DNA from: Limnoperna fortunei
Taxonomy: Eukaryota > Mollusca > Bivalvia > Mytilida > Modiolidae
Direction: 5' to 3'
Length of the DNA stretch: 64,000 nt
Assembly: GCA_944474755.1 (NCBI GenBank)
Contig: OX104117.1
Coordinates: forward strand, 76,422,926 to 76,486,925
Part shown: piece after piece, positions 21,230-46,849 of the stretch
Position numbering within the stretch: position 1 is the stretch's first letter
How the letters are laid out: each line of letters begins with the position of its first letter
The notes under the pieces: model-generated
Seen by the model: the letters and a program-made list of their open reading frames with translations, nothing else
Told to the model about the DNA's origin: nothing
Databases searched by the model: none
Position numbers and translations under genes: made by a program

Positions 21230-21239
21230 GCTTCAAACT

Positions 21240-24015: not shown

Positions 24016-24161
24016 CTATTTTGGTTTTAAAATGCTGTACGAACCCTGATTTATCTTCCTTGATTCCTCATTTGACATTCTAGCGTATGTCATCTCTTCA
24101 CCATATATTATACTCCGTATGGGTGGTCCTGCAGTTTTTAGGGTATCGATGCCGGACTCTG
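24016..24161 (-). CDS. HEPN/ROCO gene exon 14: terminal exon with tyrosine-containing tail
   Basis: The acceptor is CTATTTCAG|CAGAG (or three bases later), phase 1, and it runs to TAG at 24016-24018. It encodes about 47 residues, including TLKTAGPPIRSIIYGEEMTY and ending QGSYSILKPK. Three tyrosines (SIIYGEE, EMTYARM, GSYSIL) lie in contexts that could be phosphorylation or SH2-type sites; YSIL fits the Y-x-x-I/L pattern. The function is inferred only. Both the phase and the absence of stops support this as the true 3' end. Confidence 0.65.
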
Positions 24162-27100
24162 CTGAAATAGTTATTTGCATTAATAGTAAACACCATTATA
24201 TATTCTGGTTTACAATAAATTATTGTGTACGATTTTCATATACGAAACATAAAACAAAATAATTGCAATTTGTATATTACAACCCATATTAGTTCTACAT
24301 TAGACTGTAGCTTTATATCTGGGATCTGAATTCAAGTTGAAGTTATTTACCAAATTAAAATTGTAACTCTGTTTGCAAAAATACAGTATGCTGCAAAAAG
24401 CTTTACAAAACCCTAATTTTTTGGAACGGTTGAAAGCTTTTTTTTTTAAATTTAAAACTGATTTGTTTGCGCCCGATGCCCAATAACATCAATCAAAAGT
24501 TTGAATGCCATTTGCTGTAGAAAAACAGTTATTACAAGAAAAATCCTGAATTCAAGTTTCTAAGGTAGATCAAATTTAAAATGAGTTTTATTGTAAATAG
24601 TTTGAAGGAAATTAATCTCGCTAAATACAATTAATGTATGAAAATCGGTTAAGAACAGGTAGACGGCGCAATTAAACTACAGCTTGTTGCATAAATCCAA
24701 ACAATATTTTAATGTCCATAGATATAAAGTTTGGGACATCTAAAACATAGTTCATATAATAAACATTAATGATTTCAAACCGATCGAACAAAAAGAAACG
24801 CTGACAATTTTGGATTTACACAATCATATAACAAAACACACACACAAAAAAAAACAAACAAAAAAAATTCTTAAAAGCTCCCATGCTTCAATTATGTAAT
24901 TCCGGATTTCATGTAATCTAATAATCTGAATAAACCACCATTTACGTAAATAGTATGCAACCAGCAATTTTGTTTTTATGTTGATGTTTTGTTTGTTTGT
25001 GTTTAAAATAACAAACAAGTAAATAAATACCTTTAAACTGTTTCGATGACGGTTCATTCTCTTCATCCTTCGAAAAAAAAAGATAAATTGTACTTGCCAC
25101 ACAGTTTACACGTGTAACTGCCTAAAAAATCTCAATTACTTGGTATTCAATGTTATACACACATTTTCTTGTTTGTTTAAAAAAACAAGGTATATTTGTT
25201 GTGTAGATAAGGTTTCCATTTTAAAATTCAAAGAACCCATCAAATTGGAACCCCTCCAATCCTGTTAGATCAAGCAAATCATATTTGCATGTAAAATATA
25301 GGAAACTCATATATATGTTTACAGGTGAAATGGACATACAACATGGAACGCCCGTCTATTGTCTTGTAACTGATACGTAAAATTATACTTCAAACGTTCG
25401 TACTCATGTACATGATGCGGTTAAGTTTAATCTCCTTAAAAGACAATTTTAAAATTTTAAGACATGTTTAACTGATTGATGTCATTTTTCATGACCACTA
25501 TTGTTTATTCTGTAACATTAAAGGACCCTTTTTTATTTTATATTAATCATGTGGCTACGTTTGATGTAAATGTGGTATATACCTTACATCACCATCAATT
25601 ATAGTGTGACCACTGTATATGTGCTTGACGTAAGACAAATACAGTAATGAATTGTCCACAACATAAGCGTCCAACAACTAATGTTATAATTTTATTCTGA
25701 GACATGAATCGAACATTATATTACCAGAGAGAGATATGATTAGCTCTTTGGGTCCAGCACTGAAAACCGTCTAAAAATTGTCACAAATATAAGAGAGGAA
25801 TACAAAAAGTAATTATTTACACGAGTCGATATTTTACCTTCGAGTAGTCTTCAAACCAGGTTTGAAAGATGTCTTTTGTATCGTGCACTTCATTGTGTTC
25901 CTCACAGAAATATTTATTGTCCCCTAAATCTGTCAACTCTTTGTAGCTTTGTCGTCCTGCCACCATATGTAGGCTACCATGAGCACACTTGATCTTTACA
26001 GTAAATGTAACCTGTCTTGGTTCATATTTGTATTTCACGTTGTTCACCACTGACTTCAATTCTTCTAGCATTGCTTTGAATGCTCCTGCCTCCAGTTTTT
26101 TCCATTGCCACATTTGTATCGCAATCGTGTTTTTAGAAAAACACAAAACAAATTTTCTGCTCTTGGTACTATCGTACAAGAAAACACCCATACCATGATA
26201 TAAAGCTATTCTCCTGGATACTGCTTCAATACAAATAGAATATTGTCTGGCATAATGACTACAGATGTGATTAAAAAAGTCAAAAGGCATAAAATCGAAC
26301 TCGATACACAACCATGGTGTTAGTACACAACAGTCTCTTTTTACCCCAAACAGATCATATAACTGCATAATCGAGCGTTTCTCAGAGATCATGCATGGCA
26401 TAAAATAGTTTTGTAAATTTAGTTTCTGCCCGTTTTCCATTAATGTTGTTGGTTTTATAAGAATTCCAAACATTTCCATGACTTTAAGCAACTGATTTTC
26501 ATGTAGATAAAATTTGTTGTGAGGGTCTTTTTGAAAAAGCTTTGTAATGAGCGAGTGTTTAAGCTCTCCTGTATCTTCTAACATCTTCCATTCTTGAGTT
26601 AGTTGTAGATTTACGTCATATTTATCTGATACAAGACATTTGAAAGCATCTGCCAGCCATTTCTGGTTTAGTATAATGAACTCCTTTAAACATTCGTAGT
26701 AAATGACGTTCCCGACATTGTGCTGATATTTGAGGAAGAGGTTGATTTCGTTCTCATCATTAATGGAGCATTTTAAGGACAAATCCGTTATATCGGACCA
26801 GGACAACATGTTCACTCCAGCATCTTGTAAGATACCTAATGACCGCTCTAATCGAATCCATCTTAAGGGTATTGTTATTCCAAACGAGTGAATTTCCTTT
26901 CCAAACTCGAAAATAGATCTACGTAAATGATCAAAATCTTCTTCTGTTGGCTCTGTGTTAGACACGTAGCAAATACGACGCAAATGTTTTTGCTTGGCTT
27001 CATTATGCAATAAAGACATAAGCTGTTGACGAAACTTGTTCTTTCTTTCATCCAGCTTTAACAAATATAAAAAAAACAAGATCATTTTGACAGTTGTGTC

Positions 27101-30100
27101 CAATTTCTACCAGCCTTTCTGCAATATTAATTTTTTACAGTTATTACAATAAAAATATGTTGTTTGTTCTAAAGTATTGAATGAAAAAATTGTAAATCAG
27201 GTATTTGTTTATAACATGATAAGAAATTAAGAAAAGTTCTCGATTCAGTTCAGAGAATATATAAGAATGAAGACACTTGTAAGTATTATCTATGTTTTCA
27301 CCTGCTTATAATAATACACTGAAAATTAAGACGACAACATTTAACGTCTAATAAAATATCATCAACGATTTTCATTTTGAAAGAGCAATTTTCTTTAGTA
27401 AATTTTGACCTAAATAACAACGGAAGTCTATGTTTAGAAGAGTCTATTGTTGTCTCTTCGAAATCCTTCTGGTAATATCGTCTGCAGCTTAGGTGGGAAA
27501 AGTCTCGCGGTTTATGCAAATACCATTGAACGATACGAAAGCAGACGATGTTTTTGAAACCAACGCTAGGTCCCTTTAAAAACTCTAATGGCTGACTTCC
27601 TATGTAAAATTCCCGTAGGTAATGTGACGGATGATTTGGGATTTGTCAACAACATAGGCATACTACGCAGTGCCTCAAAAGTCAGATCGGTTCTATATCA
27701 GGCTTCGGTTTCTCATAATAACATATATAATTGGTGAATACCTCTGTCTGACACTTGTCGATATGAGTACACACAAGAATGACAGGAGGATTCAGATATT
27801 CTCCAGTAGAATCCATAGTACTATCACTAGCTCCACATGAATGTATACTATCAAACCAGAAATCAATGTATTCTGAAATCAAACAAACAATACCAAATAG
27901 GGTCTGTATTATGTGCACTTGAGCCAAGTATGCAAATTTAATATCTCTAATTGATTCATAATGAAAAGAAAATTGACAAAATACAATATCCTTTTTCATT
28001 GTAACTTTCGCATTGTAATTATCTTCTAAAGCTTTTTGTAGGTTTTTATGTGTCCCACCCACAGAGCTGCCCAGTTCGTCCCGAAGTGGCGGATATAGAA
28101 AGAACTCTCGATGGGGAATGTTAGATCATAATACACAAAGTCTGACCGCAGACAATTGTGGGAAAGCTAATGATTCCTTTTGTAGATTTCGATAAGAGTG
28201 GACTCAGTGTACCAGTTAGCAAAAGGCATAATTTCCCCCTACCCATATTCCATACTTTTGCAGTGGCATTCACTCACAACTGCACATTGGTCCTCATACT
28301 TTGTCGTTGACTTATTGTTAGTTTTCTTGTTATGGTCCTGGATATACCAGAAATGCTGCTCTTTTTATGTAAACATTCAATTAATCAATCAATCAACAAC
28401 TGTTTGTTTGAATGTTGCCACTCTTGGCAATTTTTCAGCTATTGTATGGCATCCAGTTTTTATTGGGGGAGAGAGCAGGAGTACCCGTTGAAAAAATCCC
28501 AACCTTCGGTAGGAAAACTGGTAAACATTTCCAATTAAAATTGGATCCGAGCGCACCCTGCTCGCACAGAGACTTGAACCCCCAATCTCATGGTTGACAG
28601 CTACGTGATCAGTAGTAAACGAAAGATCTAACTTAACCACACGGCCACCGAGACGCTTCAATAAAGTATTGTTTTTTACTACAATGCGAAAGGCTGATCC
28701 ATTTACCCAACCCACAGTACGTTAGCTGATATTCAGATGGCGGAAACGGGAACCTTCTCTTTTGGGATGTCATGTTATAATACGGAAAGTCTGACCACAA
28801 ACTGTAGTTCATTTAAACTGATTCCGATATACAAATACACATAAAGCACTGTTAAAGAAATTACATAATTTTGATATACTAAACTGACAAAACACATTTT
28901 ATGCAAGGTTTGCAAGAGTAAATTTTAAATTTTATCCAATTACCACATTAAAAAAATATTTGACAGTTTGGTAAAATAAAGCATATTTTATACTGTAAAA
29001 TAACACATTTATCGATGACGCAGCAAACATTTCAATTCATTGCCTTAATGATTTTTATAGAAGATTTAAAAATAAAAGGAAAATATTTTGTCTTAAAATC
29101 AAAATGCCATGAATTCCATTTTGTTTGCAGAAGTACTCACCACCAATTTTGTCATAACCACCTTCAACGCTTATCTGTTTTATATCCTTCATTACATCAG
29201 CAACCAAAAGATGTAAAGCATTTGAATTGAGGAAAACTGGATGTGTGGGATAATAATGCTTTTGCCCAGCAAAATCCCAAAATCCACAGTCTACTAAGAC
29301 CTCCTTAGGAATGTCATATTTTTCAATATCATTTATGAAGTCAGAGATTTGTTTTAAAATGTCCTCAGTAAAGACTTTTACAGGTCTAGACGTCGGTGTC
29401 TCCTCTGTCGTTTGTAACTGAATTGATTGACTGAATGGAGATGATTGGCTTGACTCGATTACTTCTAAGTCAAGTACATTGCTATTTTGTTCTTCTACAT
29501 CTGTCTTTGAAGTTGATGATTCGAGATTTTCCGCTGTATCTTCTGTTGTTTGTCTACAAACCTGATTTTCTATATTTGCTTTGCTAGTGTCTGGTTTGTT
29601 TTGCGCGACTTCAAGGATAGTGTTACGACCGATTTGAGATGTGTCTGCAGTAGTGGTATAGCTGTGTTGAGGGAAGCCTTCCTGATTTTGCTCTTTTTTT
29701 CCCATGTTTATATACTCAGCTGTCCTTGCATTAAGTGCCCGTTTTAATCTAATTATAAGGTCTCTTCTTTTATCTGTACCTGTAAGTTATACAGTTTAGT
29801 AATTATGCTCTCAATCAAACAACATGAGATCTAAATTAGCATCAATGAGGAAAAGAAACGACTATACCGATAATCATACCCCAGGTATATGGAATATTTG
29901 CTGTTCAACATATCTATATTGGTCCCTCCCTAAATCTACATACTTTAGGTTTTATCATTTCTGGCCATAGTTTCTAATTTCTAGCTTGATTTGTTCACTT
30001 ATTCTCCTACCAAATATAGCTGAAATACTGCTTGCTGGACATAAAGCTCAATGACTTAAAAATAAATAAAAAATAAATAAATATAATGAAGACCAATTCT

Positions 30101-33100
30101 GCTTATTGTTAGATTTTCTGATTGATAACATATTGACATATGGGTAACTCGACAGGTGTCTAATGAAAGGCAGGCACTGCTGCTTACTCGTCCGGAGATG
30201 CTGATGACACCCATGGTTTTTATTGGGTTTGAGTTACTCACTTTCTGTATTTGTGTTTTTGCTTTGCGTTTTTTATATTTGATTTGTAATTGTCCCTCGA
30301 ATTTCGGCTCTTTTTGTTGGGTCGGTTTCCTTTTCTATTTGCATACAATAGTTACCTAATATGACTGCAAAGAACTTTATAATATTCACCCTTTTAACAA
30401 CCATTGAAATTAAATGATCTATAGGCTTCGAGGATTTTGTCATGATAAAAATGGATAAATATTGTCAACAATGCCAACTGTTTCATTAAGAAGCAGGACA
30501 ATTAAAAAAACTGATTGTTTATAGACACTTTCTTCAGATGTTAGGATTTTGTTTTTCAGTGACATACTTGTGGTTCCCTATGCACGATGCACAGAGATAC
30601 CTAGTGCGTCGGCATTATGACCTGCCAGTATCTCAGGCCTCCGTTATTTTCTACCTACAGGATCGCTGGGCAGCTCTGTGCATCGAACACTGGAACCTTC
30701 CTGGTATGGTACCAGACCATAAATAAGATCCATTGTCAAAAATTATATTTAGGCATTTCTATTGTTTTGCATATCTTTGTTTTGGCAGTTAAGATTCTCA
30801 ATATAGTGAATTGGATGTCCGAGCAAAATTATATAAGTATACTTGGACTAAACCGAGATGATTCTTAGTCCCCAGTGTTCGACTTACAGCTACCAAGTGC
30901 TTAGTCAGGTGGTGGATGGGGAGGGCCACTAAATGAGAATTGTTGGTTTATAATACAGAAAGCCGGATCGCGGACAATAATAAATGAGCCGTTGGAAGTG
31001 TCACCCTCCTTACAAAAAGCTTTCAGAGGCTAGTTTATCCGCCACTTCTTATTACTCTGTCAGGCAAAAATTTTTGCGATGTCCCACTCCTTTATCCTAT
31101 TGATTTTTGTGTGTTGACTTGTTCTCTTCCTTTATACAACTGCCAATTATTCCTTGGTTCCTGGGCATTCGGCAAAAATTCTATCGATCAATAAACCAAT
31201 ATCTTTGGGGATAATTATTTAAATTGAACAGTTTAATATTAGGAAATTCTCAGTGTAAAAAACTTGTTTTGTTGGGTGTATGGGCATTTCCCTTCAATAT
31301 ACTGTTTATGCTTGCGACATAATGAAATTATCAATCAATTTATTTTTGCCTTGATATATTTTTTAAATTTTGTATGTCATTCAATCAGTTTGGTAATCAA
31401 TAGATTTATACTAGTATTTAAAAGAAATGTACCTTTATCAATGACCCATTTTCCATCATAAAGCCTGATTTTACACCTATGAACAATGTCAATACCATCA
31501 GTTGATTCAACATCTTCAATTGTATCACCAAGCAGTCTGCGCAGTAAGCACGTCTTTCCAACTCCATTTTCTCCAATAATTACAATTCTTATATAATATC
31601 TTGTTTCTTTGCCGGATTTAATGATTTCAAAATAAAGACCTTTATCTTCCTCACTTAGTGAACGAAGAGCTGCTGGGAATTCTGAAATGATTTATTAAAA
31701 TGTTTTACATTAACGTTTATTCTCAGTGAAATAAGTTAGTTGCAGTCATTTTTCTATGTAAAACGCTTTTATTTACCAACTGAGTAATCGCTGTTATTTA
31801 CCAAAAAATTCCAATATGACGCACCTAAAACGCGATGACTTAACACGTGCTTTCAGTTATCCTAATCAACGTCATAAATGATCAACATTCGTTATTGCGA
31901 CGTCATAGTAAGAGTTTTCACATATTTGATCGACGTCACAATCAACTGTCCTGTTACTCTTTGGTAACATTGATAATAAAAAGTAATAGATATGGTCTAT
32001 TGGAATCAAAAGAATTCATTGATTCAAGAATATATATTGATTTCATCACGAGGTGGTTATTTATGCGCATATTTTACACCCTCGCTCACGCCCGGGTAAA
32101 TATTTGGCATACAGGGCCAACCCGTATATTGATGATTTGTGAACAGGCATTATTAGATGGATGAAATTATTTTGAAATAAATCATTCAGCAATTGCGGCC
32201 TGTATACATAGGCAGAATTTCTAGAAACAATGATTTTAATTTTTGGTTAGAAATGTTCTAGGTACAGCATTTAAGTTCTTTTTTATAATAAACATTTAAA
32301 CTTTTCAGCATGGAACCAAAACACCACTTAGACGAAGTGATGTTGGCATCCGCCATAAAAAGTGAAACATGAACGATACAATAGCTGTCTGACATGATAA
32401 CTCATAGATAAAAAAGCCCTGTTACATGATTAGTCATGAGAATAGAAACGTTGATTTATTACTTGTCTAACTGCTAGCAAGCAATATTTCTTAAAAACGA
32501 GAATATGTTAGTAAACAATAAGTCAACTGGTCAAGCTTTCGTATAAGAACCCCAACGAGAACACCTTTCCCATATGATATATGTAGACGATCTGTCTACT
32601 GTGGTCTGTGGTCCCCTTTGGGGCTTTCCGTATTATAACCTGACATCCACCCGGCATGTAATATTAAACTCTGTTGGAAATAAATAGGATGAAAATATGC
32701 ATATACCAACATAAAATGCAACGTTATCAGTGACGTTTTACAACGTAACAAAATTTAACGTTTTAAATTTCATGGTTTAAAGTTTTTTTATTGCTGTAAA
32801 ATGCAGTTATGTTGTACATTACATTTCTACGTAACAAATAATCCACCGGTCTTTCATTTAACAAAATATTTATATATTGTTCGTATTGGTAACATTCCAA
32901 GAAGAACCAGCGATTTACAGAAAGCCACTGTCTTGATTATTTTAAAACTGGACGGTATTTTATGACTGTATTTTGCGAAATGCAGTTTGCCTCAAGTTTT
33001 TTGGGTGCCTCGTTGTAAGAGTGGTAAAGGTATTTCGTGTACTATTGATCACGTGGTCTGTCAACACTGAGACTTCGGGTTCGAGTCTCACTGCGGGCAT

Positions 33101-36100
33101 TGTGCACTCAACTCCAATGTTAATTGGCAAAGATTGACAGTTTTCTTACCGAAGGTCGTGGATTTTTTCTGGGAACTGCGGATCACTACCCAATAAAAGC
33201 TTCACGCCATGATATAGCTGTAAAATTCCTGAAAGTTAAACACCATTCAAACTAAACCAACCGTTAAGGTTTTTGCAAGACGGCGTACTGATTTCTATAC
33301 GCTATTGTTAGAATTAAAAAAAAAACTTGCCAGGCATAAATTATGGGATTTTTCTTTATTGGGTTGTTAACGGAAAATGCATTAAAAATGTTTGAAAATC
33401 TGTAGAAAAAATATATCCAGACATTAAGTAATCCCTTAAGAGATGGCATACATGTATGGGTAGGAAATGTAAATGACTTATATGGAATGCTTATATTTAG
33501 GAAAAAATGACAGGTTAAATCAGTTTTTAAAGTTGCCATATTTTAAATAAATATTATGTAAATATGTGTATTTTGTTAATTTTATCTATTTGTTTTGATA
33601 ATGTATATATATTTTTAATAGCAAGTATTGCTTTGTGTGGAATGTGTCTATTTAGTTTTTCTTTTATGTTACTGAGCACTGTAAGCAAGAACAATTTCGC
33701 GGATAATATTTCCGCGTATTAGTGTAAAAAATTTCGTGTGGGGGTTATAGTTAAAGCTTTCTTTTTGTAAATAAATCATTCTCAAAAGTGATTTTTCGGA
33801 TTTTTCTTAATAGCGAATGTAGCAACAAATACCCTTCGTGTTGTATGAGAAAACTAAGGCATATTTCCATTAAATGGGTTTAAGATAATTCACAGCAAAG
33901 TTTGGAAAAAGTATTCCCACATATTTAAAGAAGACTGAAGCCTTTGAAAAAATAACGACCAGAGATAATGACTTTGCTAAAGAAAATGTATCATTTAATT
34001 CAGTCCTCGAGAATGAAAGAGCGAATGTTTTAGTAATAAGGACATTTCATAAGCTCGGGACGCTGATTGTGTTATGAAAAATCTTTATTTTTATATATAA
34101 GCATGTCAGTCGTTGACATAGTTTGAAAGTGTAATTTCAGAATCAATTTAGTACTGTAGTCGATGAGAAAATCATTGACAATTGTCCGGTTTTTATCGAG
34201 GATCGGTTTCCCTTTTTTTTTGGTAAAACTCTACTCATACGATTACATTTTTTGTATTTTATAATACGATATATTATTTTTAAAAAGTTGCTTTATGACA
34301 GAAGAATCTTGCCATCCAATATTTGAGGTGCTCACGAATGAGTTGTCTTTCTTTTGTCTTGCATTTCACCCAATCATCACTCCCGGAAGCACAATATCTT
34401 CATGAAAGCGCGTGATTTGTCGCTGTCGTTTTTGTTGCTTTCAAGGAAAACACGTTTAACGGAGATTACAGTATACAGTTTTATACATTGTTCTCTATTA
34501 TAAAGATCGATTTCAAAGTTTCAGTTACGTATATTAGTTTTGCATTTAATCTTGCAATTGGCATTTAAATTCGTGAAAATTTATCCTTTCATTATAGTTT
34601 TACTGGGGTTAAAAAGAGATTACACCTTAAAAAAATCGGAACACATTTGGGGTTTAAGAGCGCGTTTGTTTTTAGCTTACTCTAAGGAACGGATATATGA
34701 GTTGAGAAATTGATGCGTCCTAGTATGGTCACTTCACCACAAACAATGTTTACATTTGTTGGACAGGTGTATTTCATCAAGTCTCTTTTCGGTAATGTGG
34801 GTAAATGTTTCAGAAAAAAAACATTTAAAAAAAGGAAAAATGCCGGAGATACATACCGTTTACATTAAGTGAAGCAGTTCTTACTCTGTTGTTAATATTG
34901 ACTGTATAATCCCCGGCATCATGTAAATCACATTGCAATATTGACAGGCTGTGAACTTTTCCAACTTGTATCATTTTATATTTCTTGTCATTTTTCAGAT
35001 TTGTTCCGTTTTTGCTCCAGCATGCAGGAAAGCCGTCTTCTACAACTTCACAAATGAACTGTACATTTCCCCCCTCCATACATTCAGTACTTTGTGGATT
35101 CTTCGTAAAGTACTCTGTTAATAATGTTAGATACTATATATATACAATTGACATGTTTAAGATTTAGGGATTTAAGGACGAAGATGAGTAGTATGTGTGT
35201 GAGATTTGTGTTTCTGCGGTTTTGTAAACATTTGTACTAATGAACTGCTGAATTACATACAAGAAAATAAAAGATTATAATCCCAATATATACAAACAAA
35301 TTGACAAAAAACAATATTTACTGTTTGGTATTCTAAAAGTGCATTGAATTTTCAGTATATTTTTGCTCAATCGTAAGTCTATATGTCCTATTACCTATTG
35401 TCCCTCTTGTACATGTAGAAAATAAAACAAAAATCCTTCCAGCAATTTTTCTGCACATGTAAATGTTAATGTCTATAAATGTCTTCAAAAATTTGCTGTG
35501 AATATTTAAAGAAAAATTACATGATTTACCTGTCACGTGCAAGCATGCCTTTCTTTCAATGCCGTTTACTTTCACAGTGTAGCATCCTTGATCAGAGAAA
35601 CTAATGTTCTTGATGTCCAGATGAATTGAGCCAAACATTTTACACATTAATTTGTCAGAGTTTACTAACTCCGACCGATCTTTTGACCACATCGAGCATA
35701 GGCCTTGTTGTTTCGTCCATATCTCAAAGTGAGCATCACAGCCTTCAATAACAGTGACATCACTAAGATCTTTGACTATACTATCTGAAGAGATCAGAAT
35801 TACAATTTAGTTATAGCATAAATAGGTAAAATATGTAGTTTAACCTTAATCCATAACTGTAAGACTTTTTTACAAAATGTTTGCTATCATACACATAGTG
35901 TGACCTTGGGTCATAAAGTGTGACGTGTTTAAATGTCACGCTCGTAGAACAATAAAGACCTTTATGCAGATTTTGGATAAGAGACACTGAAATCACAATA
36001 CCTAATTCATACTCAAAAGCTTTTCCAGTGGCAGTTAAACAGTTTTGTTCTGTTAGTCTATCCGTAACTCTACTGATGCATTGTTTGTTAATTTTGTTTC

Positions 36101-39100
36101 GTCCTATATACAGTTAAAATATTGCTAGCTGGACGTGAGGTTAAACATTCAAGTATTCAATTAATTTTTACCGCCACCATATAAGGACTGTTTTAAACTG
36201 ACTTTTGCATAGCACACACTCGGGTCGTATTTAAGTTATATCAAATATAACTATGGATCGTCTTAATGTGACCAAGAAAACACCGTGATACAACTTGGTC
36301 CTTTCGACTTCTAAAAGAAGTAAACTTTTATGGCGAAAGAATTGTTCGATCTCTCAAAGTAAACAGTTTAAAATCATTAAAGCAAATTAGCCCCTTGACG
36401 GCGACTGTGTTTCCTGGATTACCACATGACTAGATGCCATGCCGCTTGCACATATCATTCAATTTTGTTGAAATTTTGTTTGCAATGAAGACTCCCACAA
36501 TAATGCATCCTTATTCTATTACCTAATAGTTTGTAACTATGATTTATAATTTAAATTTACTATTTGTTTATTACATACTTGCAGATAGAAGCAAGTTGTT
36601 GTTATCTTCTAAACTTTCCACAGGAAGTTCAACAGTATTATATAACTTCTTATCCACAACATGTTTTTGCGGTTCATCTAAGGGTAAAATATAAATGTTG
36701 AATATTTTATTCAGTTACTTAGAGTTGATAACATCCATCAGTTCCATACACGATATTACTATCAACACGTCCTCTTTAACACTAACGTGTGTTTAAATGT
36801 GTTAGGAATCTATTATAACATCAGATCGACCAATATTTTGCATATATATCAATAAAAGCTCACAAATACAAACATTATTGTATTTGTACATGGATTGTTT
36901 AGGTTCTTTATAATATCGGGCCTAAAATACCGAATTACCTGTAGTTTAAATTAAAATGCTACATTCCATATACTTGAGTTGTAATTAAAGAAGTTTTCAT
37001 AAGTAATTTCCTTTTGATTTGATAACTCCTCTCTACAATTCTTGATCGCAACAGTTGCCAAGAAAAAATGCAATCAGATATTCCCTGGTAACATTTACTA
37101 CGAAAAACGGAAGTAAGTACAGATCTGCTATTAATCAAATAAAACAAACAATACAATATTAGTTACATTTGTTTGCAATGTATGAATTTAACAAATAATA
37201 CCTTATAATAATACTTACTATAATAAAAGTAAATTGTTTATTTGTTATTTAACAGACACATACCGTGAAAACGAGATGTTAATTTAGCAGTTTCGATGGG
37301 TAATTCCTCCAATCCATTTGAGTTGATTACTCGTTCTACTAATCCGCCACGTTCTGATGACAATAACTGCTCAGAATCAAAAAGTTCAGGCTTGACGATT
37401 AATTCCAGTTGAAGTGCTCCTGGACTAATGAAATCGTCAAAACACGACTCCAATTCAACACTGTCTAAGTCTAACCCTAGTTCAGTGCAATCTATACAAA
37501 CCGATACAAACAGAGAAAAAACAAATGAGACATTTTGAATACATGTATCACCTATCAATATAAGTATCATACTGCCTCTTCATATGACGGGTAAACTACC
37601 ACTTAATTTCTTAAGTTTGTAATAATTACAAAAAACTGTGTCCAACAATAAAAACATATAAAAATATTTGACAGAACTGTAAAATAATGCCTAATGCAAT
37701 AATTCTATTGTTATATATTTGTTCAAATTGTCAGAAATGAAAGCGTACTTCAGCCCATCTGGTTATAGTGTCTTCACGCGTGAATACATAGGGTAATATG
37801 TTATAATACGGACATCATGACCGCAAACTACGCCGTGGTAACGTGTGTTGATGGTGTTACTCTCCTTGCACAATAAAGACCCGTTGTCTAGATTTTCAAC
37901 GCAAGAGTAACGCATTGTAGCCGCTACACAAGTCTATATTTGTCGTTTCTAACGGACTTTCTAGTATTTTTGCTATCAGTCCAATTAATGCCCCATTATC
38001 ATCATGAGTATTGCTTAGTATGCAATCAATAAATTAACTAATCAATGGAAAAGATTACAAAATGTTTTATACATAAAAAATGACAAAAGCTCACAAGGCC
38101 CGAAATCTAGGTGCTTAATTGTTATTTGAGAAACAATTAATAAAGTTATCTAATTTGCTGTAAAATGTTACTAATGTACATACCAACTTCACTGACAAGT
38201 ACTACGTTGATCCGTTCTTTATCATTTATGTTTCCAAACTGAAGAATCCGTTGAATGAAGGACGATAAAGCCTCTGCTAGTTTTGAGTTGGACATTATCA
38301 CTGTGTCGTCTACACTGACATGTAAAACTAAACTTCCAACAGTAGCCTTTTCAAACTGCACCAAGATCTGACATGCATTTATTTGATCCTTGATATCATT
38401 TAAGTATTTGATCTGTTCTTCTCTTAGTACAGTATCCTCAATAACGATTGTTATCTTCGTTTTCTCTAAAGTTAATTTATAATTAAGACATGTCAAGTGA
38501 TAATAAAAAGCTGGAAGTGACGTATAAAATTTACGTTTATATATATATATCGGTTTAGTAAAATATGGTTTGCTCTTATTAATAGAAACAAGTACATAAA
38601 CCGTTGTAAAATGCATATTTTAAACCTCATAAAAAATGTTGAGTTATATCATTTTTTTCCCAGTAGGAAATTGACCCCTTCCTGAATGATAAGTTGAACA
38701 ACTGTATTTTTTAGGCTACATATGCATGATTTGTTAAAAGAGGTGCTTATATTTATTGTTTTAATTTACAAAAAGAGACGGTTCAATATCTCATGACAAC
38801 GGGTTAATAATGCCCATGTTAGAACCTATTGAACGGTTCGTTTTTTCTAGACTTAAATCTTGATTTTAATTACTCAAAACAAGTGATAAAAACCAAGTTG
38901 TAAAACAGATGATATCTTATATGTCTAAAGTATCACTGGCAAACATTTTTGCAGGCATTTTATCGAAATAAACAATTAAATAATGTAAATTTACAAAACC
39001 TTCAGTCCACATATTAAACTTTTCAGCTCGTTCCTGCAAGCGGTTAAATTCTACGTAATTTCTAGATACTCCTCAGTTTCCCAGTGGCAGTCATAATTTT

Positions 39101-41437: not shown

Positions 41438-41474
<37 letters not shown>

Positions 41475-42159: not shown

Positions 42160-42223
<64 letters not shown>

Positions 42224-42303
42224 ATATTAACCCTGTATTTCTGATGTTTCAGAAATCCGCTGGATAGATATATTATATGGTTGTCACAATACTTAGGCGT
42301 TTG

Positions 42304-42358
<55 letters not shown>

Positions 42359-43189: not shown

Positions 43190-43246
<57 letters not shown>

Positions 43247-46200
43247 CAATGAATCTCAAAAGAAAGGATTCCGGGTATAGTACGTCACCCACAATCACTT
43301 TTATTACACCATTGGTTGACGCCATTAGAGATAGCTTTCTCATGGCGGAGAAGTCTCTCGTTTAAACGCAGTACTTTTTGTAAACAATATTAAATAAATA
43401 AGATCTCTGGTACTTTTTTAACATGTCTTTGTTTACTAACATCACGGCAGACAACAGTTCCGGAGTAAACGAGGGATTACTTATGGCAAAGGTTACATCT
43501 GTTATAAGGGTATGTTATCAGTGACGGACATTGATATTGTGGTGTCTCAGTATATCAACTGGTTAGCGTCTTTGGTTCGACCTTATAAATACATCACACA
43601 AGCCGCAAACATTAAATATATATGCAAATGTTTTAGAGCTTTCAAAAAAGAATCATTATGAGAAAAAAGGAACTGAACGTCAAGGCAATTTTATAGCACT
43701 GATTATTTTAAAAAGTTCCAAAAAGTGTAATTATTGGCCAGAATATGTTTGTTTGTTTGTTTGAATGTTGTTTCAGCAATTTTTCCGCTATATTATGGCC
43801 TCCAGTTTTTATTGTGGGAGGAAGCCGGAGTACCCGGAGAAAACCACCGACTATCTGTAGGAAAACTGGTAATCCTTGTCAAGTGAGATTGGAGTCGAAC
43901 GCACCCTGCCCGACGTGAGGCTTGAACCAGCAATCTCAGTGTTGACAGACCACGTGATCTACTAGGCTACGGCCAGAATATGTGTTAAATAATAAGACAA
44001 AAGCAAAGAAAACCGACCAAACAACATTAGCCAAAAGCCAAGGGACAGTCACAAATCCGGATATAGACGAACACAACACAAAAACCAAAAGCATAAAACA
44101 CAGAAAGAGAGTAGCCCGAACCCAATAAAAACCATGGGTGCACTTAGGTGCTCCGGACGAGTACGCAGTGCCTACCTCTAACTAGATACCCGCCGAGTTA
44201 CTCACTGTCATGTCCAGGGAAAAGTCAAATGCAGGAATAAGAAACACTACCTATGACTCAGCGAAAATGTCAGATCGTATTTGAGACACTGATTTCCCAT
44301 AACGATCAATTAAGTGATGGTGACGACCATACAATTCTGGAGAGATAGCATCAACCTAGGTACAACAAACCGCTGTTTGATTAGTTTAGCAGTCAACAGC
44401 AATTAATTGATTTATTGTTTGTTAACTTATTCACGTCCTAAATATAACTGAAATATTTCTCGCTGGATTAAAGAAAACGAATCAATAAAACATAAAATAT
44501 GGCATACTGTATGTGCGTTAGACGATCAACAATTTGAAATTATATACTGTAAATAATCAACTTACCTTTTATTTCCTCTAATTCTCTTAGAGCTTGAACA
44601 TATCGGTTTTCCAAGTCAGAGTCGATCTGACATGTTCTGTATTTGCATACGGCTGATTTAAAGCCATTATTAATAGTTTTTCTAAGATACCGGTCAACTC
44701 TATCAGACACGTCCTCCACTTCAGAGAAAACTGTGTTCATTTGTTCCTCTGTAACAGTCGTGTTTATTCTATGCGCAAATGAATTCCGTATAAACCTAAG
44801 CCTTTCAATGTCATCTGATATTTTCAGATTACAAATCTTTGGCAGATTGCCCCATCCTTCCGTGGGTTTATCGAGAACGGCGTAAGCTCTAATTAATTTA
44901 CACATCAGTGTAAAATCTAAGTTGTCGTAAGAATTATCTTTCAAGGTATTTAGTTTACTTTCTTCTTCACGGGTAAAAGATTTATTAAAGTTTGTAGGAT
45001 TGTTTCTCCTTTCCCGTCAATTTGTCTATAGAGCATACTAGCTGATATATTAGAAATGATGACTTCTCTTACAATACTTGGTAATATTTCAACTATAATT
45101 AAACCTATTCTTGAATATCTTGTTCTCCCTTCTGTAACTGATTTCCAGAGAAATGGATTATCTGAAATTAGAACAGGTTTGACTTGAAATGGTCCTCTGA
45201 TCCTTAAATATATCTCAAGGTTTTGAATTTGTTTGAATGGTGTTTTAACGCAACTTTCGGCAATTTTTCAGCTATATCATGGCGTCCAGTTTTTATTGGG
45301 TACGGAAGCCGGAGTACCCGGAGAGAACCCCCGACCTGCGGTAGGAAAACTGGGAAACCTTGTCAATTAAGATTGGAGTCGAGTACACCCTGCCTGCAGT
45401 GAGAATCGAACCCGCAATCTCAGTGTTGACAGACCACGTGATCAATAGCAGACGAACTACCTTGACCACTCGGCCACTGAGGTCCCTTATATCTCAAGGT
45501 AACTACAACCACCTTTGGTGGAAACGTTTAAAATTTGTCATTCTACATTTCTGCTTTCTATCATACTTCAAACGTTTGTCTTAACAAGATTAAACAAAAA
45601 CGTTGATTCGTATGTCTTATTGGACTTATAAGAGGGGTTCAGCCTACAAAATTGTGAAAGTTCACATTTCTGAACCGTCTAGGAACATCCATGCATCCAC
45701 AATGCACTTAACAACTGTGTCTGATGCTTACGATAGGCCTTAGTCGTAAATAAAACGATAATGATCTAATGTATGAATTTAATTATTGGTATAATTGGCA
45801 AGTTATATTAGAAAACCTTTTAAAAAACAGAATGAATTCTCTGATGCTACAAAAAATGAGATTGCCTTTTCTATAAATGAATATAACGTCAACTATTTGT
45901 AACATTAATCTTCAAAGGTCATGATATAGATTTTTCTATGAAAAATCAACGAAAAATTAAAAAGGACAGTTCTTGTTAACACACGAGGTACTGTTCCTAT
46001 ACTAAAATTATGATTAAGGTCTCCATGCAACGGTTGTTAATTTGTGCATGTGTAGGAGCAGTAGATATGTGGGCGTCAGCAAGTGTTATGTTATATTATA
46101 CAATATTCAAAACAACCGTCCTATGTACGTATCGGATTTGTTTGTAAACATTTGAAATGTTAATATCAAAAACACTTTGTATCATCAGATAGTTAGGCAA

Positions 46201-46849
46201 ATGCGTATTTTGTCTAAATATTTGGAGTATATTACGTGAGTTTTTTATAACATCAACAATTCAAATAAAATACATACCCGCAATTGTATGCTGGCTATGA
46301 AGTCTTCTAATTAAATTCATAACATGGGCATCATCAACCATTTGCAATAAACCAAGGTCAGGCACAATGTTTGCATCCAGATTAAAATGGATCCGTATGC
46401 GTTCAGTAATCTGTTGGAATTGGTTGATAGATGTTCTATACACATTTTCATCTACATCTGTGTCAGACATTGAAATAATATCATTTGCTTGCCTACGTAT
46501 ACGTTCAATGTCATCAGCCAAGGTGATGTCATCAGAAGATGGACTGTTACCCCAGTTTTGGGCTGGTGGCTCCAACCACGGAAAAACCCTAAAGAATGTG
46601 TAACTCAATCGTAAACTAAACTCTGAATATCCTGAATTGGTATCCATTCTTTCGACAACTGAAAAGTCATCTTCATGTAGTACATGTCGTAGCTGAGGGT
46701 TTTTGCGGAAAAATCTACACATGTACTCTGTCGATGGTACAATGTTCATCAAAATAATTTGTAATAATTTTGGGAACATTTCAAGTACTAATTTGCCCAG
46801 TACAGCTAATCGTCTTTGTTCCGCTGTTGGCATTTTCACATCCAATCGT
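24016..46849 (-). CDS. HEPN-HEPN-Ig-Ig-Roc-COR multidomain protein gene (14 coding exons)
   Basis: I joined 14 minus-strand exons. Every junction has GT/AG, introns 1-10 and 13 are phase 1, and introns 11 and 12 are phase 0. The model predicts about 1,590 residues if one missing base in exon 2 is allowed. Order (approximate residues): DZIP3-like HEPN 1 (1-185); HEPN 2 with RNSFAH (about 311-316); alpha/beta domain (410-503); acidic linker (504-612); two I-set Ig domains (613-783); Roc GTPase with GENGVGKT (about 820), WDFAGQ (about 1034) and THID (about 1115); COR (1123-1529); 60-residue tail. No signal peptide or membrane helix is evident, so a cytoplasmic protein is likely. HEPN domains are often RNases, and Roc-COR is a GTPase module with dimerisation. 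A nucleotide-switched immune or stress sensor is my inference. A 5' non-coding exon probably exists, because exon 1 starts at an acceptor. TSS and poly(A) site were not identified. Confidence 0.85.
25031..25067 (-). CDS. HEPN/ROCO gene exon 13: microexon
   Basis: The acceptor is TTTTTTTTTCGAAG|GATGAA and the donor is AAAG|GTATTT; 37 nt, phase 0 to phase 1. It encodes DEENEPSSKQFK. It is supported by a strong polypyrimidine tract and by phases that match exon 12 before and exon 14 after. It is short, so less certain than the other exons. Confidence 0.6.
25838..27055 (-). CDS. HEPN/ROCO gene exon 12: end of Roc plus COR domain
   Basis: The acceptor is ATTTGTTAAAG|CTGGAT and the donor is TCGAAG|GTAAAA; 1,218 nt, phase 0 to phase 0. 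It starts LDERKNKFRQQL, then RRICYVSNTEPTEEDFDHLR (G5 region and end of Roc). The COR domain follows: IPLRWIRLERSLGILQDAG, LKYQHNVGNVIYYE, LNQKWLADAFKCLV, ELKHSLITKLFQ, VMEMFGILIKP and a beta-rich C-terminus. In ROCO proteins COR mediates dimerisation and couples to GTP hydrolysis. If intron 12 is retained the frame stops at 25817, which would give a form without the tail. Confidence 0.92.
27742..27872 (-). CDS. HEPN/ROCO gene exon 11: Roc G4 motif
   Basis: The acceptor is TTTGATTTCAG|AATAC and the donor is ACAGAG|GTATTC; 131 nt, phase 1 in and phase 0 out. It encodes EYIDFWFDSIHSCG, an acidic loop, then PPVILVCTHIDKCQTE, where THID is the guanine-specifying G4 motif ([NT]KxD in most Ras-like GTPases). 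The frame continues upstream of the acceptor by chance, but polypyrimidine plus AG and phase define this start. Confidence 0.9.
28055..28270 (+). repeat. Interspersed repeat R3 (intron 10)
   Basis: It starts 'cccacagagctgcccag', with 'gaagtggcggatatagaaag', 'agtctgaccgcagacaatt', and ends 'acttttgcagtggcattc'. It lies next to the exon 11 side of the intron. Confidence 0.7.
28395..28655 (-). repeat. tRNA-derived SINE (intron 10)
   Basis: Minus orientation. The reverse complement has box A CGGTGGCCGTGTGGTTAAG, box B-like GGGTTCAAGTCTC, then the usual body and 'gcaatttttcagctattg'-side end. Confidence 0.8.
28715..28800 (+). repeat. Interspersed repeat R3, partial (intron 10)
   Basis: It has 'agatggcggaaacgggaac' and 'gttataatacggaaagtctgacc', abutting the SINE head at 28655. 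Confidence 0.55.
29141..29779 (-). CDS. HEPN/ROCO gene exon 10: Roc insert and switch II
   Basis: The acceptor is TATAACTTACAG|GTACAG and the donor is GGTG|GTGAGT; 639 nt, phase 1 to phase 1. The first 25 residues are basic and helical (RRDLIIRLKRALNAR). About 110 residues of S/T/E/Q-rich low complexity follow (SSTSKTDVEEQNSN). The fold then resumes with EDILKQISDFINDIEKY and FWDFAGQKHYYPTHPVF, where DFAGQ is the G3/switch II motif. The insert between G1 and G3 is unusually long compared with LRRK-type Roc domains. It may be a regulatory, phosphorylatable loop (inference). Confidence 0.9.
30130..30350 (+). repeat. Interspersed repeat R2, copy 3 (intron 9)
   Basis: 5'-truncated copy: 'aactcgacaggtgtctaatg', 'cacccatggtttttattggg', 'ttgggtcggtttcctt'. 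Confidence 0.75.
30885..31070 (+). repeat. Interspersed repeat R3 (intron 9)
   Basis: It has 'caggtggtggatggggagg', 'ttataatacagaaagccgg' and 'gtcaccctccttaca', ending near 'gtcaggcaaaaatttttg'. Confidence 0.65.
31433..31681 (-). CDS. HEPN/ROCO gene exon 9: Roc GTPase N-terminus with P-loop
   Basis: The acceptor is ATCATTTCAG|AATTC and the donor is AAAG|GTACAT; 249 nt, phase 1 to phase 1. After a lead helix (LRSLSEEDKGLYFEIIKSG) comes strand RIVIIGENGVGKTCLLRRLL, where GENGVGKT is the Walker A/G1 motif. Then STDGIDI holds the switch I/G2 threonine region. This is a Ras-of-complex-proteins (Roc) domain as in ROCO proteins. The exon is too AT-rich and short to be listed as a long ORF, but its frame is open throughout. 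Confidence 0.92.
32585..32660 (-). repeat. Interspersed repeat R3, partial (intron 8)
   Basis: It includes 'ctttccgtattataacctga', the reverse complement of the family block 'ttataatacggaaag'. Confidence 0.5.
33005..33255 (+). repeat. tRNA-derived SINE (intron 8)
   Basis: Plus orientation. The head has a box B-like GGGTTCGAGTCTC (33076) after 'gatcacgtggtctgtcaac'. The body is 'ctccaatgttaattggcaa', and the 3' end is 'ccatgatatagctgtaaaat' followed by 'gttaaacaccattcaaac'. Confidence 0.8.
34857..35114 (-). CDS. HEPN/ROCO gene exon 8: I-set immunoglobulin domain 2
   Basis: The acceptor is TTATTAACAG|AGTAC and the donor is AACG|GTATGT; 258 nt, phase 1 to phase 1. It reads EGGNVQFICEV (B strand with Cys), the core W in ACWSKNGTNL, then CDLHDAGDYTVNINN (tyrosine corner). 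The strand F position normally holding the second Cys is Val (YTV), so no standard disulfide forms. This again suits an intracellular Ig fold. Confidence 0.87.
35530..35784 (-). CDS. HEPN/ROCO gene exon 7: I-set immunoglobulin domain 1
   Basis: The acceptor is ATCTCTTCAG|ATAG and the donor is ACAG|GTAAAT; 255 nt, phase 1 to phase 1, the usual layout of a shuffled Ig exon. It contains VKDLSDVTVIEGCDAHFEI (A-B strands), the core tryptophan in CSMWSKD, and the tyrosine corner SFSDQGCYTVKVNG. The canonical disulfide cysteines (B strand, and Y-x-C in strand F) are not at their normal places, as in cytoplasmic I-set domains of titin type. Confidence 0.85.
36579..36677 (-). CDS. HEPN/ROCO gene exon 6: acidic linker
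   Basis: The acceptor is TTACCCTTAG|ATGAAC and the donor is GCAA|GTATGT; 99 nt, phase 1 to phase 1. It encodes DEPQKHVVDKKLYNTVELP and then VESLEDNNNLLLSA. It has no recognised domain and was identified by exact phase fit to exons 5 and 7. Confidence 0.7.
37264..37491 (-). CDS. HEPN/ROCO gene exon 5: acidic linker
   Basis: The acceptor is TTTGTATAG|ATTGC and the donor is CACG|GTATGT; 228 nt, phase 1 to phase 1. It encodes DCTELGLDLDSVELESCF, then about 55 more residues rich in Leu and Glu (PELFDSEQLLSSERGG). No fold is recognised. It is probably a linker or a short interaction region. Confidence 0.75.
37760..37960 (+). repeat. Interspersed repeat R3 (intron 4)
   Basis: It has 'gttataatacggacatcatgaccgcaaact', 'gtgttactctccttgcacaa' and 'tgtagccgctacacaagt'. 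Confidence 0.7.
38184..38465 (-). CDS. HEPN/ROCO gene exon 4: alpha/beta domain (TRADD-N-like?)
   Basis: The acceptor is ACTTTAG|AGAAAAC and the donor is GTTG|GTATGT; 282 nt, phase 1 to phase 1. The 94 residues begin KTKITIVIEDTVLREEQIKY, a strand followed by a helix. Later come VGSLVLHVSV (strand), LAEALSSFIQRIL (helix) and INVVLVSEV (strand). The strand 'GSLVLHV' followed by a helix recalls the TRADD N-terminal-like fold reported in animal and bacterial immune proteins, but I recognise it from pattern only. What is certain is an intact, single-exon, compact alpha/beta module. Confidence 0.75.
39429..39506 (-). CDS. HEPN/ROCO gene exon 3: linker
   Basis: The acceptor is TTTTGCAG|TTAGAC and the donor is CACG|GTAAGC. 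It has 78 nt and is phase 1 to phase 1. It encodes 26 residues, RHIYFYYGKSFEGFIDK and then LRNEMTNH, linking HEPN 2 to the alpha/beta domain. It was called because both splice sites and both phases fit exons 2 and 4 exactly. No domain of its own is recognised. Confidence 0.7.
40453..40615. repeat. Foldback element with ~70-bp arms (intron 2)
   Basis: The left arm, 40453-40523 (including CATGGCTGCCCCAATTTTAT), is an almost perfect reverse complement of 40545-40615 (ATAAAATTGGGGCAGCCATG). The spacer is about 20 bp around 'ttcgctaacgctcatgg'. This is a MITE-like hairpin; transcribed within the intron it could form a stable RNA stem. Confidence 0.9.
41440..41475. repeat. (TA)n microsatellite
   Basis: Uninterrupted TA dinucleotides following 'accaagg'. 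Confidence 0.95.
42162..42220. repeat. (TA)n microsatellite
   Basis: About 58 bases of TA dinucleotides between two copies of the 'ctggatagatatatta' / 'ttaaccctgtatttc' module. Confidence 0.95.
42304..42357. repeat. (TA)n microsatellite with one interruption
   Basis: TA dinucleotides with a single 'ac' near 42315, ending at 'cgtctccgggta'. Confidence 0.95.
43189..43240. repeat. (TA)n microsatellite
   Basis: About 50 bases of TA following the last tRNA-like module. The flank 'ttattacaccattggttgacgcc' (43302) is shared with 42393. Confidence 0.95.
43745..43975 (-). repeat. tRNA-derived SINE (intron 2)
   Basis: Minus orientation, with 'gaagccggagtacccgga', 'gtaggaaaactggtaatc', 'gttgacagaccacgtgatc'. 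The tRNA-like head is truncated at the junction with the R2 repeat. Confidence 0.75.
43978..44345 (-). repeat. Interspersed repeat R2, copy 4 (intron 2)
   Basis: Minus orientation. It includes 'aaaaccatgggtgcactta', 'cgagttactcactgtcatg' and 'cataacgatcaattaagtg', the reverse complements of the family blocks. It abuts the SINE at 43745-43975. Confidence 0.75.
44566..45161 (-). CDS. HEPN/ROCO gene exon 2: DZIP3-like HEPN 2, with apparent 1-nt deletion
   Basis: The acceptor is CTAATTTCAG|AT and the donor is AAAAG|GTAAGT at 44565, phase 1 in and out. The first part (45161 to about 44980) reads DNPFLWKS, then RYSRIGLIIVEILP, the usual start of this HEPN family. The second part reads SYDNLDFTL, PTEGWG, SDDIERLRFIRNSFAH. 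The two parts are in different frames. The switch fits the loss of one base in the A4 run (plus strand) at 44975-44978, and the exon length (596) is one short of frame. RNSFAH is a canonical R-x4-H HEPN motif, so this domain looks catalytically competent if the frame is whole. Either the allele is broken or the assembly has an indel. Confidence 0.8.
45225..45490 (-). repeat. tRNA-derived SINE, best copy (intron 1, immediately upstream of exon 2)
   Basis: Minus orientation. The reverse complement starts with a tRNA-like head containing box A TGGCCGAGTGG and box B GGTTCGATTCT. The body follows (gattggagtcgag..., reverse sense) and then the 3' end, with 'ggcgttaaaacacc' in reverse sense. Box A matches the Pol III consensus and box B is close to it. 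The element stops about 65 bp from the exon 2 acceptor. Confidence 0.85.
46278..46849 (-). CDS. HEPN/ROCO gene exon 1: DZIP3-like HEPN 1
   Basis: The acceptor is ttttattttTAG at 46850-46851, the ATG is at 46833, and the donor is CGG|GTATGT at 46277; it ends in phase 1. It encodes MPTAEQRRLAVLGKL, then a helical domain with SEFSLRLSYTF, EPPAQNWG and LADDIERIRRQAND, typical of the DZIP3/hRUL138-type HEPN family. The expected catalytic R-x4-6-H motif is not intact: the helix reads RRQANDIIS, with no histidine. This unit is therefore probably a non-catalytic HEPN. A dead paralogue lies at 6978-7495. An alternative unspliced reading would start upstream at 46917, but the extra residues are hydrophobic and low in complexity and the acceptor is good, so I prefer 46833. 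Confidence 0.85.

What the first reader, a model, noticed from the sequence alone, without database searches (positions are those of the whole stretch)
24016..46849. HEPN-HEPN-alpha/beta-Ig-Ig-Roc-COR: a composite protein joining a probable RNase module to a ROCO GTPase
Seen: 14 exons with matching splice phases encode, in order, two DZIP3-like HEPN domains, a compact alpha/beta domain, two Ig domains, a Roc GTPase (GENGVGKT, DFAGQ, THID) and COR. Known: HEPN domains are effectors of many RNA-targeting defence systems, and Roc-COR proteins are nucleotide-switched dimers. Inference: a GTP-controlled RNA-cleaving immune sensor, with Ig domains as ligand or oligomerisation platforms. I know of no vertebrate protein with this order.
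Basis: partly seen in the sequence, partly recalled or inferred. Interest (0 to 1): 0.92.

Follow-up and report, generated by a model that had tools for sequence, protein, structure and literature searches.

The report
RNase-armed GTPase immune sensor in bivalve
One strand of what is likely a bivalve genome carries, in order, exons for two HEPN domains (one keeping the motif predicted to cut RNA), a domain that is likely an adaptor, two immunoglobulin domains, a Roc-COR GTPase switch and a likely beta-propeller; they likely form one protein that would cut RNA once a sensor trips the switch, and predicted mussel proteins join subsets of the same parts on single chains.

Summary
The array is real, with corrections. 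Roc, COR-A, two I-set domains and HEPN2 pass Pfam cut-offs; HEPN1 is just below (24.9 against 27 bits) and has lost both catalytic residues. The gene likely does not stop at 24,016: predicted single-chain Mytilus proteins (P0012, P0014, P0020) align in order from the Ig domains through Roc and COR to a B-box and likely beta-propeller at 21,196-20,332, which also supports the Ig-Roc join. The 'alpha/beta' exon models as an RRM-like fold with Gly-Ser at the beta2-beta3 turn, the published TRADD-N hallmark; no profile confirms it. HEPN with Roc-COR is not unique: 17 of 121 fetched Roc-COR proteins carry a HEPN after COR, 17 of 17 with Rx4H or Rx5H. This gene's order was found in none of the 121. 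The start of HEPN2 is unsure: one reading of its exon breaks frame, another does not. The join of the HEPN exons to the rest rests on splice phase, strand and order only. Best reading: a cytosolic, NLR-like ROCO receptor with a predicted RNase effector gated by Roc-COR dimerisation; activity, gating and immune role are inferred.

The parts
46278..46849 (-). Exon 1 (ATG at 46,833): HEPN1, DZIP3-like, catalytic Arg and His lost; an acceptor at its 5' side implies an upstream untranslated exon
   Evidence: splice ends, phase 1 out; PF18738 24.9 bits, below cut-off 27; HEPN1 vs HEPN2 hhalign prob. 95.7
44566..45161 (-). Exon 2: HEPN2, DZIP3-like, keeps RNSFAH (Rx4H). From the stronger acceptor (45,161) the frame changes once inside; from a weaker acceptor (44,964) the exon is unbroken
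   Evidence: (PF18738 51.3 bits for the C-terminal part; no family for the upstream half)
38184..38465 (-). Exon 3: RRM/ferredoxin-like alpha/beta domain, TRADD-N-like (Gly-Ser at the beta2-beta3 turn)
37264..37491 (-). Exon 4: 76 residues, no family found
36579..36677 (-). Exon 5: 33-residue linker
35530..35784 (-). Exon 6: Ig domain 1 (I-set), no canonical cysteines by eye
34857..35114 (-). Exon 7: Ig domain 2 (I-set), one of two canonical cysteines by eye
31433..31681 (-). Exon 8: Roc P-loop half (GENGVGKT)
   Evidence: Ig2-Roc junction aligned with P0012, P0014, P0020
29141..29779 (-). Exon 9: Roc insert and DFAGQ
27742..27872 (-). Exon 10: Roc end (THID)
25838..27055 (-). Exon 11: COR
   Evidence: (COR-A 45.6 bits)
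25725..25770 (-). Exon 12, phase 0 to 1 (predicted)
24045..24161 (-).
22073..22100 (-). Exon 14, 28 nt, phase 1 to 2 (predicted)
20332..21196 (-).

Best explanation
The exons most likely make one cytosolic receptor protein, HEPN(dead)-HEPN-TRADD-N-like-Ig-Ig-Roc-COR-B-box-beta-propeller, in which a nucleotide-switched Roc-COR dimer would bring two HEPN2 domains together so that they are predicted to cut RNA after the propeller or Ig part senses an invader or damage. Shown: the order of domains on one strand; intact GTPase motifs; an intact Rx4H motif in HEPN2 and its loss in HEPN1; predicted single-chain Mytilus proteins collinear with exons 6-15. Inferred: the splice from the HEPN exons to exon 3; that HEPN2 is made whole, by one of the two exon readings; RNase activity; gating by dimerisation; the sensor role of propeller and Ig; the immune role. 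The dead HEPN1 makes a particular prediction: one chain can offer only one Rx4H, so a two-sided HEPN active site would need two chains, which is what COR dimerisation would supply (RNase L follows a comparable dimer rule; recalled).
For: Pfam scores for HEPN2, I-set x2, Roc and COR-A above cut-off. Exons 3-9 phase 1-1 (7 of 7, ends placed by hand). Collinear predicted single-chain relatives: P0012 aligns with window residues 210-459 (Ig to Roc) and 616-1469 (Roc-COR to propeller); P0014 and P0020 likewise from 235. Mytilus P0001 and P0002 carry Roc-COR plus the same propeller. HEPN with Roc-COR recurs: 17 of 121 fetched proteins, 17 of 17 with Rx4H or Rx5H, 17 of 17 after COR, including TIR-Roc-COR-HEPN (P0094), Schlafen AlbA-Roc-COR-HEPN (P0099), ankyrin-Roc-COR-HEPN (P0110, P0119) and P0118 with OTU. 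hhalign of eight of those HEPNs with window HEPN2: prob. 91.3, E 9.6e-07. In the precomputed Pfam accessions of the 120 rows, Roc-COR also sits with caspase, CARD, Death, BIR and PARP/macro domains (names of these accessions recalled): an effector-swap pattern. Published parallels: DZIP3-HEPN on NACHT in pearl oyster (PMC9646362, passages); bacterial AP-GTPase-COR conflict proteins with at least 24 domains in the effector position (PMC8195603, section 15 read).
Against: With the stronger acceptor the HEPN2 exon changes frame; the unbroken reading needs a weaker acceptor. None of the 18 I-set plus Roc-COR proteins gave a HEPN match. Exon 3 matched none of the 121. In the other chains the Rx4-5H HEPN follows COR (17 of 17), so the position is not conserved; among the nine HEPN-bearing proteins scanned only P0096 also has a Pfam HEPN match before Roc (residues 240-286), without the motif by eye. 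hhalign of P0118's HEPN with window HEPN2 and with the Mytilus group gave no support (prob. 0.6 both). No Pfam TRADD-N hit. No expression, biochemistry or infection data. A decayed HEPN1-like exon lies at 7,495-6,972, so loss does occur in this locus.
Confidence: 0.52

Rival explanations
1. Two neighbouring genes: a HEPN-HEPN gene (exons 1-2, continuing into exons not recognised or ending near 44,540) and a separate TRADD-N-like-Ig-Ig-Roc-COR-propeller gene whose start lies in the 6.1 kb gap, for example at the ATG in the open frame before exon 3.
For: The exon 2 to exon 3 gap is long and holds microsatellites; the predicted Mytilus Ig-Roc-COR-propeller chains have no HEPN match; exon 3 lies in an open frame 38,619-38,146 that holds an ATG.
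Against: Exon 2 ends in a good phase-1 donor that needs a partner, and the next recognised exon downstream has a phase-1 acceptor. HEPN plus Roc-COR chains recur elsewhere; HEPN plus TRADD-N chains are published in cnidarians and bivalves (PMC8195603, passages).
Confidence: 0.22
2. A decaying or non-catalytic locus: HEPN2 is truly frame-broken or cut short, HEPN1 is dead, and the remaining protein is an Ig-Roc-COR-propeller scaffold, or the HEPN pair only binds RNA or partners.
For: Frame change in the longer exon 2 reading; HEPN1 motif lost (sequence); a decayed sister exon at 7,495-6,972.
Against: No stop in the 1,470 residues of exons 3-15; Rx4H kept in HEPN2; an unbroken exon 2 reading exists; over 100 codons exon 1 and its decayed copy differ with dN 0.23 against dS 0.49, which suggests past constraint on at least one.
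Confidence: 0.2
3. One reading: the protein ends at 24,016 after COR with no propeller.
For: Exon 13 read through reaches a stop at 24,016; the exon 13 donor (GTTCGTAC) is weak.
Against: Exons 12, 14 and 15 join in phase with or without exon 13; P0001, P0012, P0014 and P0020 all carry Roc-COR and this propeller on one predicted chain. Both ends could exist as splice forms.
Confidence: 0.06

Closest known systems
Mytilus Ig-Roc-COR-B-box-propeller proteins (P0012 M. californianus LOC127729668, P0014 M. edulis, P0020 M. trossulus; predicted gene models)
   Same: Collinear Ig, Roc, COR, B-box and propeller; same Ig-Roc junction
   Different: No HEPN match and no match to the TRADD-N-like exon
Bivalve Roc-COR-HEPN proteins (P0028, P0032, P0094, P0096, P0099, P0101, P0105, P0107-P0111, P0114, P0116-P0119; 17 of 121)
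   Same: HEPN with Rx4H or Rx5H and Roc-COR on one chain
   Different: That HEPN follows COR; varied fronts (TIR, Schlafen AlbA, ankyrin and others in the nine scanned). Among the nine scanned, P0096 alone has an Ig-like match, below Pfam cut-off, at its C-terminus
Pearl oyster DZIP3-HEPN proteins, many with NACHT (PMC9646362)
   Same: DZIP3-like HEPN with Rx4-6H, N-terminal to a nucleotide switch in more than 50 NACHT proteins; expanded in bivalves (passages)
   Different: The switch is a NACHT ATPase, not a Roc-COR GTPase; the paper's suggestion of degrading viral RNA is made for the HEPN proteins without NACHT
Bivalve and cnidarian TRADD-N receptors (PMC8195603)
   Same: RRM-like TRADD-N domain with uS at the beta2-beta3 turn, usually between globular domains; HEPN named among partners (passages)
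   Different: No TRADD-N joined to Roc-COR is named in the passages and the one section read
Bacterial AP-GTPase-COR conflict proteins (PMC8195603, section 15)
   Same: Roc-COR-type switch with swappable effectors
   Different: Bacterial, LRR sensors; HEPN is not named among the effectors in the section read (the figure was not seen)
Brown algal LRR-ROCO candidate immune receptors (PMC11378527)
   Same: ROCO genes built by phase-matched exon shuffling, proposed as immune receptors (passages)
   Different: LRR-ROC-COR only; the word HEPN does not occur in that paper's main text

Membership tests
HEPN superfamily, DZIP3/hRUL138-like | Profile match PF18738 above gathering score | tested here: met
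   HEPN2 51.3 bits against 27; HEPN1 only 24.9
HEPN superfamily, DZIP3/hRUL138-like | Rx4-6H RNase motif | tested here: met
   HEPN2 RNSFAH; not met in HEPN1 (sequences)
HEPN superfamily, DZIP3/hRUL138-like | Domain encoded whole, without a break | tested here: inconclusive
   Longer exon 2 changes frame; shorter exon 2 is unbroken but lacks the N-terminal part of the profile, about its first 25 positions
HEPN superfamily, DZIP3/hRUL138-like | RNase activity | not testable with these tools
   needs assay
ROCO (Roc-COR) GTPases | Roc followed by COR on one chain, with GTPase motifs | tested here: met
   Roc 49.4 and COR-A 45.6 bits, both above cut-off; collinear with P0001, P0012
ROCO (Roc-COR) GTPases | Nucleotide-dependent dimer | not testable with these tools
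   needs protein
TRADD-N superfamily | RRM-like beta-alpha-beta-beta-alpha-beta fold | tested here: met
TRADD-N superfamily | uS (tiny residue, Ser) in the beta2-beta3 turn | tested here: met
   G43-S44 of the model; hallmark from PMC8195603
TRADD-N superfamily | Sequence-profile match | tested here: inconclusive
   No TRADD-N family listed at E <= 10 in Pfam, filters drop weak matches; VIA rows exclude nothing
NLR (NACHT/NB-ARC) receptors | STAND ATPase domain | tested here: not met
   NACHT profile only 15.4 bits against 26.7, on the P-loop alone; may work like one, is not one
Mytilus Ig-Roc-COR-B-box-propeller proteins | Ig, Roc, COR, B-box, propeller in this order | tested here: met
   alignments; B-box (18.2 bits against 27) and NHL (14.5 against 20) matches are below cut-off, so the propeller is named from homology and weak matches

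The most novel reading that the evidence does not exclude
Bivalves run a third great class of innate immune receptor beside TLRs and NLRs: ROCO receptors, in which a Roc-COR GTPase takes the place of NACHT and carries exchangeable effectors (HEPN RNase, caspase, CARD, TIR, BIR, PARP). This gene is a member whose RNase is held by a dead/live HEPN pair and fires only when GTP-controlled COR dimerisation pairs two live HEPNs, an animal counterpart of the bacterial AP-GTPase-COR defence proteins.
Probability: 0.3. Interest if true: 0.88.

Novelty: new variant of a known kind. Interest (0 to 1): 0.62.

Why it matters
If one chain joins a HEPN RNase to a Roc-COR switch, bivalves have a directly testable GTP-gated RNA-cutting immune receptor, and the large mussel Roc-COR family (114 of the 120 listed hits are from Mytilus) becomes a candidate receptor repertoire. 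It would also bear on what Roc-COR does in LRRK2 and DAPK relatives, where the link between nucleotide state, dimerisation and output is still debated (recalled). The HEPN-Roc-COR fusion in animals was not described in what I saw of the papers returned by the searches (listings, passages, one section; open-licence PMC papers only).

Tried and rejected
Considered and set aside: NLR membership (no NACHT); gene end at 24,016 as the only end; a membrane receptor like P0001 (P0001 has a stretch at 3.0 on the Kyte-Doolittle scale; the window pieces tested, exons 12-14 not among them, peak at 1.93 in the upstream HEPN2 piece), not excluded outright.

Led nowhere: the N-terminal protein search (none); PDB sequence search with exon 3 (none); the HEPN1 model (pLDDT 42, not searched); TRADD-N not among the 50 rows, which excludes nothing; the paper search for Roc-COR with immunoglobulin and bivalve (none) and for ROCO with bivalve and expansion (listing only, nothing on point but PMC9334734 and PMC8195603). 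Whole-genome searches did not complete.

Limits: 120 of the 236 hits were listed and examined, plus P0003 (121 in all); itself scored only 7,992 candidates. Domain content of the 121 comes from precomputed Pfam lists and from searches with the window's own pieces; 13 of the 121 were scanned with Pfam for domain order, and P0001 and P0002 besides. The HMM was seeded with window HEPN1, HEPN2 and four of the same proteins, so its E-values are not independent; the unseeded phmmer step matched HEPN2 in 7 of 121 and HEPN1 in 2 of 121. Pfam itself saw HEPN_DZIP3 in 2 of the 9 HEPN-bearing proteins scanned (P0096, at an N-terminal stretch, and P0118). Literature calls returned capped lists (20 of 441, 20 of 24, 3 of 4, 9 of 10, 20 of 5,409).

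Full report
What is there. On the minus strand between 46,849 and 20,332 lie fifteen candidate coding exons. I placed them by hand from the sequence and open frames and checked splice ends and phases by script. Exons 3 to 9 are each a multiple of three and phase 1-1 (7 of 7), though ends were picked with phase in mind. One exon corresponds to one domain for HEPN1, HEPN2, the alpha/beta domain, Ig1 and Ig2, the classic anatomy of exon shuffling (inference). Pfam supports HEPN2 (51.3 bits), I-set (74.3, two stretches), Roc (49.4) and COR-A (45.6); HEPN1 scores 24.9, just under its cut-off of 27.

First, the two HEPNs are not equal: HEPN2 has DDIERLRFIRNSFAH, HEPN1 has DDIERIRRQANDIIS, so the Rx4H is present once. 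Second, the start of HEPN2 is unsure. From the stronger acceptor (45,161) the exon is open in one frame and then in another, the two frames overlapping at 45,016-44,950. From a weaker acceptor (44,964) it is an unbroken 399-nt phase 1-1 exon that keeps nearly the whole Pfam-matched stretch but not the N-terminal part of the profile. The upstream half looks to me like the start of a HEPN, yet Pfam lists nothing for it and its likeness to HEPN1 is weak (hhalign prob. 10.7, E 0.0029). So the break may be an assembly slip, a bad allele, decay, or no break at all. Third, the gene probably goes on past 24,016. The Mytilus protein P0001 (E 5.1e-134) ends in a domain that matches the minus-strand frame at 20,332-21,237 (31% over 259 aa, E 2e-45). 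Exons 12 to 15 join in phase, with or without exon 13. P0012, P0014 and P0020, predicted mussel proteins, align with window exons 6 to 15 in order: Ig, Roc, COR, B-box, propeller; the Ig2-Roc junction aligns closely in all three. So the Ig-to-Roc and COR-to-propeller joins are supported by homology; the HEPN2-to-exon 3 and exon 3-to-Ig joins rest on phase, strand and order.

Relatives. A profile of Roc-COR-propeller sequences found 236 proteins at E <= 1, of which 120 were listed: 114 Mytilus, five other named bivalves (scallops and freshwater mussels; that these genera are bivalves is recalled), one without a name. Their precomputed Pfam accessions show I-set in 18 of 120 and, in smaller numbers, caspase, CARD, Death, BIR, TIR, PARP/macro, OTU, Schlafen AlbA and ankyrin beside Roc-COR (several of these names recalled from the accession). 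HEPN: an iterated HMM found it in 17 of 121 fetched proteins, every one with Rx4H or Rx5H, every one after COR. Before iteration, phmmer with window HEPN2 matched 7 of 121. hhalign of eight of these HEPNs against window HEPN2 gives 91.3% probability, E 9.6e-07, but P0118's HEPN, which Pfam does recognise (61.1 bits), gives 0.6% with either. Pfam's own model sees HEPN_DZIP3 in two of the nine HEPN-bearing proteins scanned; in P0096 it is an additional N-terminal stretch (240-286, no Rx4-6H by eye), not the C-terminal one. P0096 also has a weak Ig-like match at its C-terminus (V-set 21.7 bits against 26), so HEPN, Roc-COR and possibly Ig share a chain elsewhere, in another order. None of the 18 I-set plus Roc-COR proteins gave a HEPN match, and exon 3 matched none of the 121, so the full order seen here was found in none of them.

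How it most likely works. No signal peptide was seen and the Ig domains lack the usual cysteine pair by eye, so I place the protein in the cytosol; a membrane helix is not excluded, as the upstream HEPN2 piece reaches hydropathy 1.93. COR is a dimerisation domain and Roc a small G-protein (PMC11378527, passages). HEPN RNases tested use the R and H of the Rx4-6H motif and leave cyclic phosphate ends (PMC3710099, passages). With HEPN1 dead, a chain offers one live motif; pairing two chains through COR would pair two. The propeller and Ig would be the sensing and scaffolding parts, and the TRADD-N-like domain the coupling element. Everything in this paragraph beyond the sequence facts is inference.

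Comparison with what is known. In pearl oyster more than 50 NACHT proteins carry an N-terminal DZIP3-like HEPN, and HEPN proteins without NACHT are suggested to degrade viral or transposon RNA (PMC9646362, passages). Bacterial AP-GTPase-COR proteins hold at least 24 domains in the effector position (PMC8195603, section 15 read). Aplysia has TIR-ROCO proteins and one NLR-like protein with a DZIP3-like HEPN (PMC9334734, passages). Brown algal ROCOs are candidate immune receptors built by exon shuffling, and animals are said to have as many as forty ROCO domain combinations (PMC11378527, passages). So the parts, and the idea of ROCO in immunity, are known. What looks new is HEPN on Roc-COR in animals and this gene's order: four papers in the library hold both HEPN and ROCO (three listed), and in what I saw of those three (passages and one section) none describes it. 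Hence: new variant of a known kind.

Verdict.

Noticed in passing
window 7,495-6,972 (-): A decayed copy of the HEPN1 exon (about 55% identical over 166 aligned positions) with in-frame stops and a frame change; over a 100-codon block against exon 1, dN 0.23, dS 0.49. Suggests a tandem family in this region.
   Followed up: partly
window 29,141-29,779 (-): A large low-complexity insert (well over 100 residues) sits inside Roc between the P-loop and DFAGQ; Mytilus P0001 and P0002 have an insert at the same place with little sequence conserved.
   Followed up: no
window 55,129-55,689 (+): DDE transposase fragment (PF13358, 50.7 bits).
   Followed up: no
window 60,782-61,282 (-): Reverse transcriptase fragment (PF00078, 62.7 bits); other open frames nearby look retroelement-like by eye.
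   Followed up: no
window 50,820-51,122 (-): Open frame of a ten-residue tandem repeat (GKYVTTKVRL-like), seen; likely a 30-base satellite.
   Followed up: no
P0094, P0099, P0118: Bivalve Roc-COR-HEPN proteins with TIR, Schlafen AlbA or OTU on the same chain: several predicted immune enzymes around one GTPase switch.
   Followed up: partly
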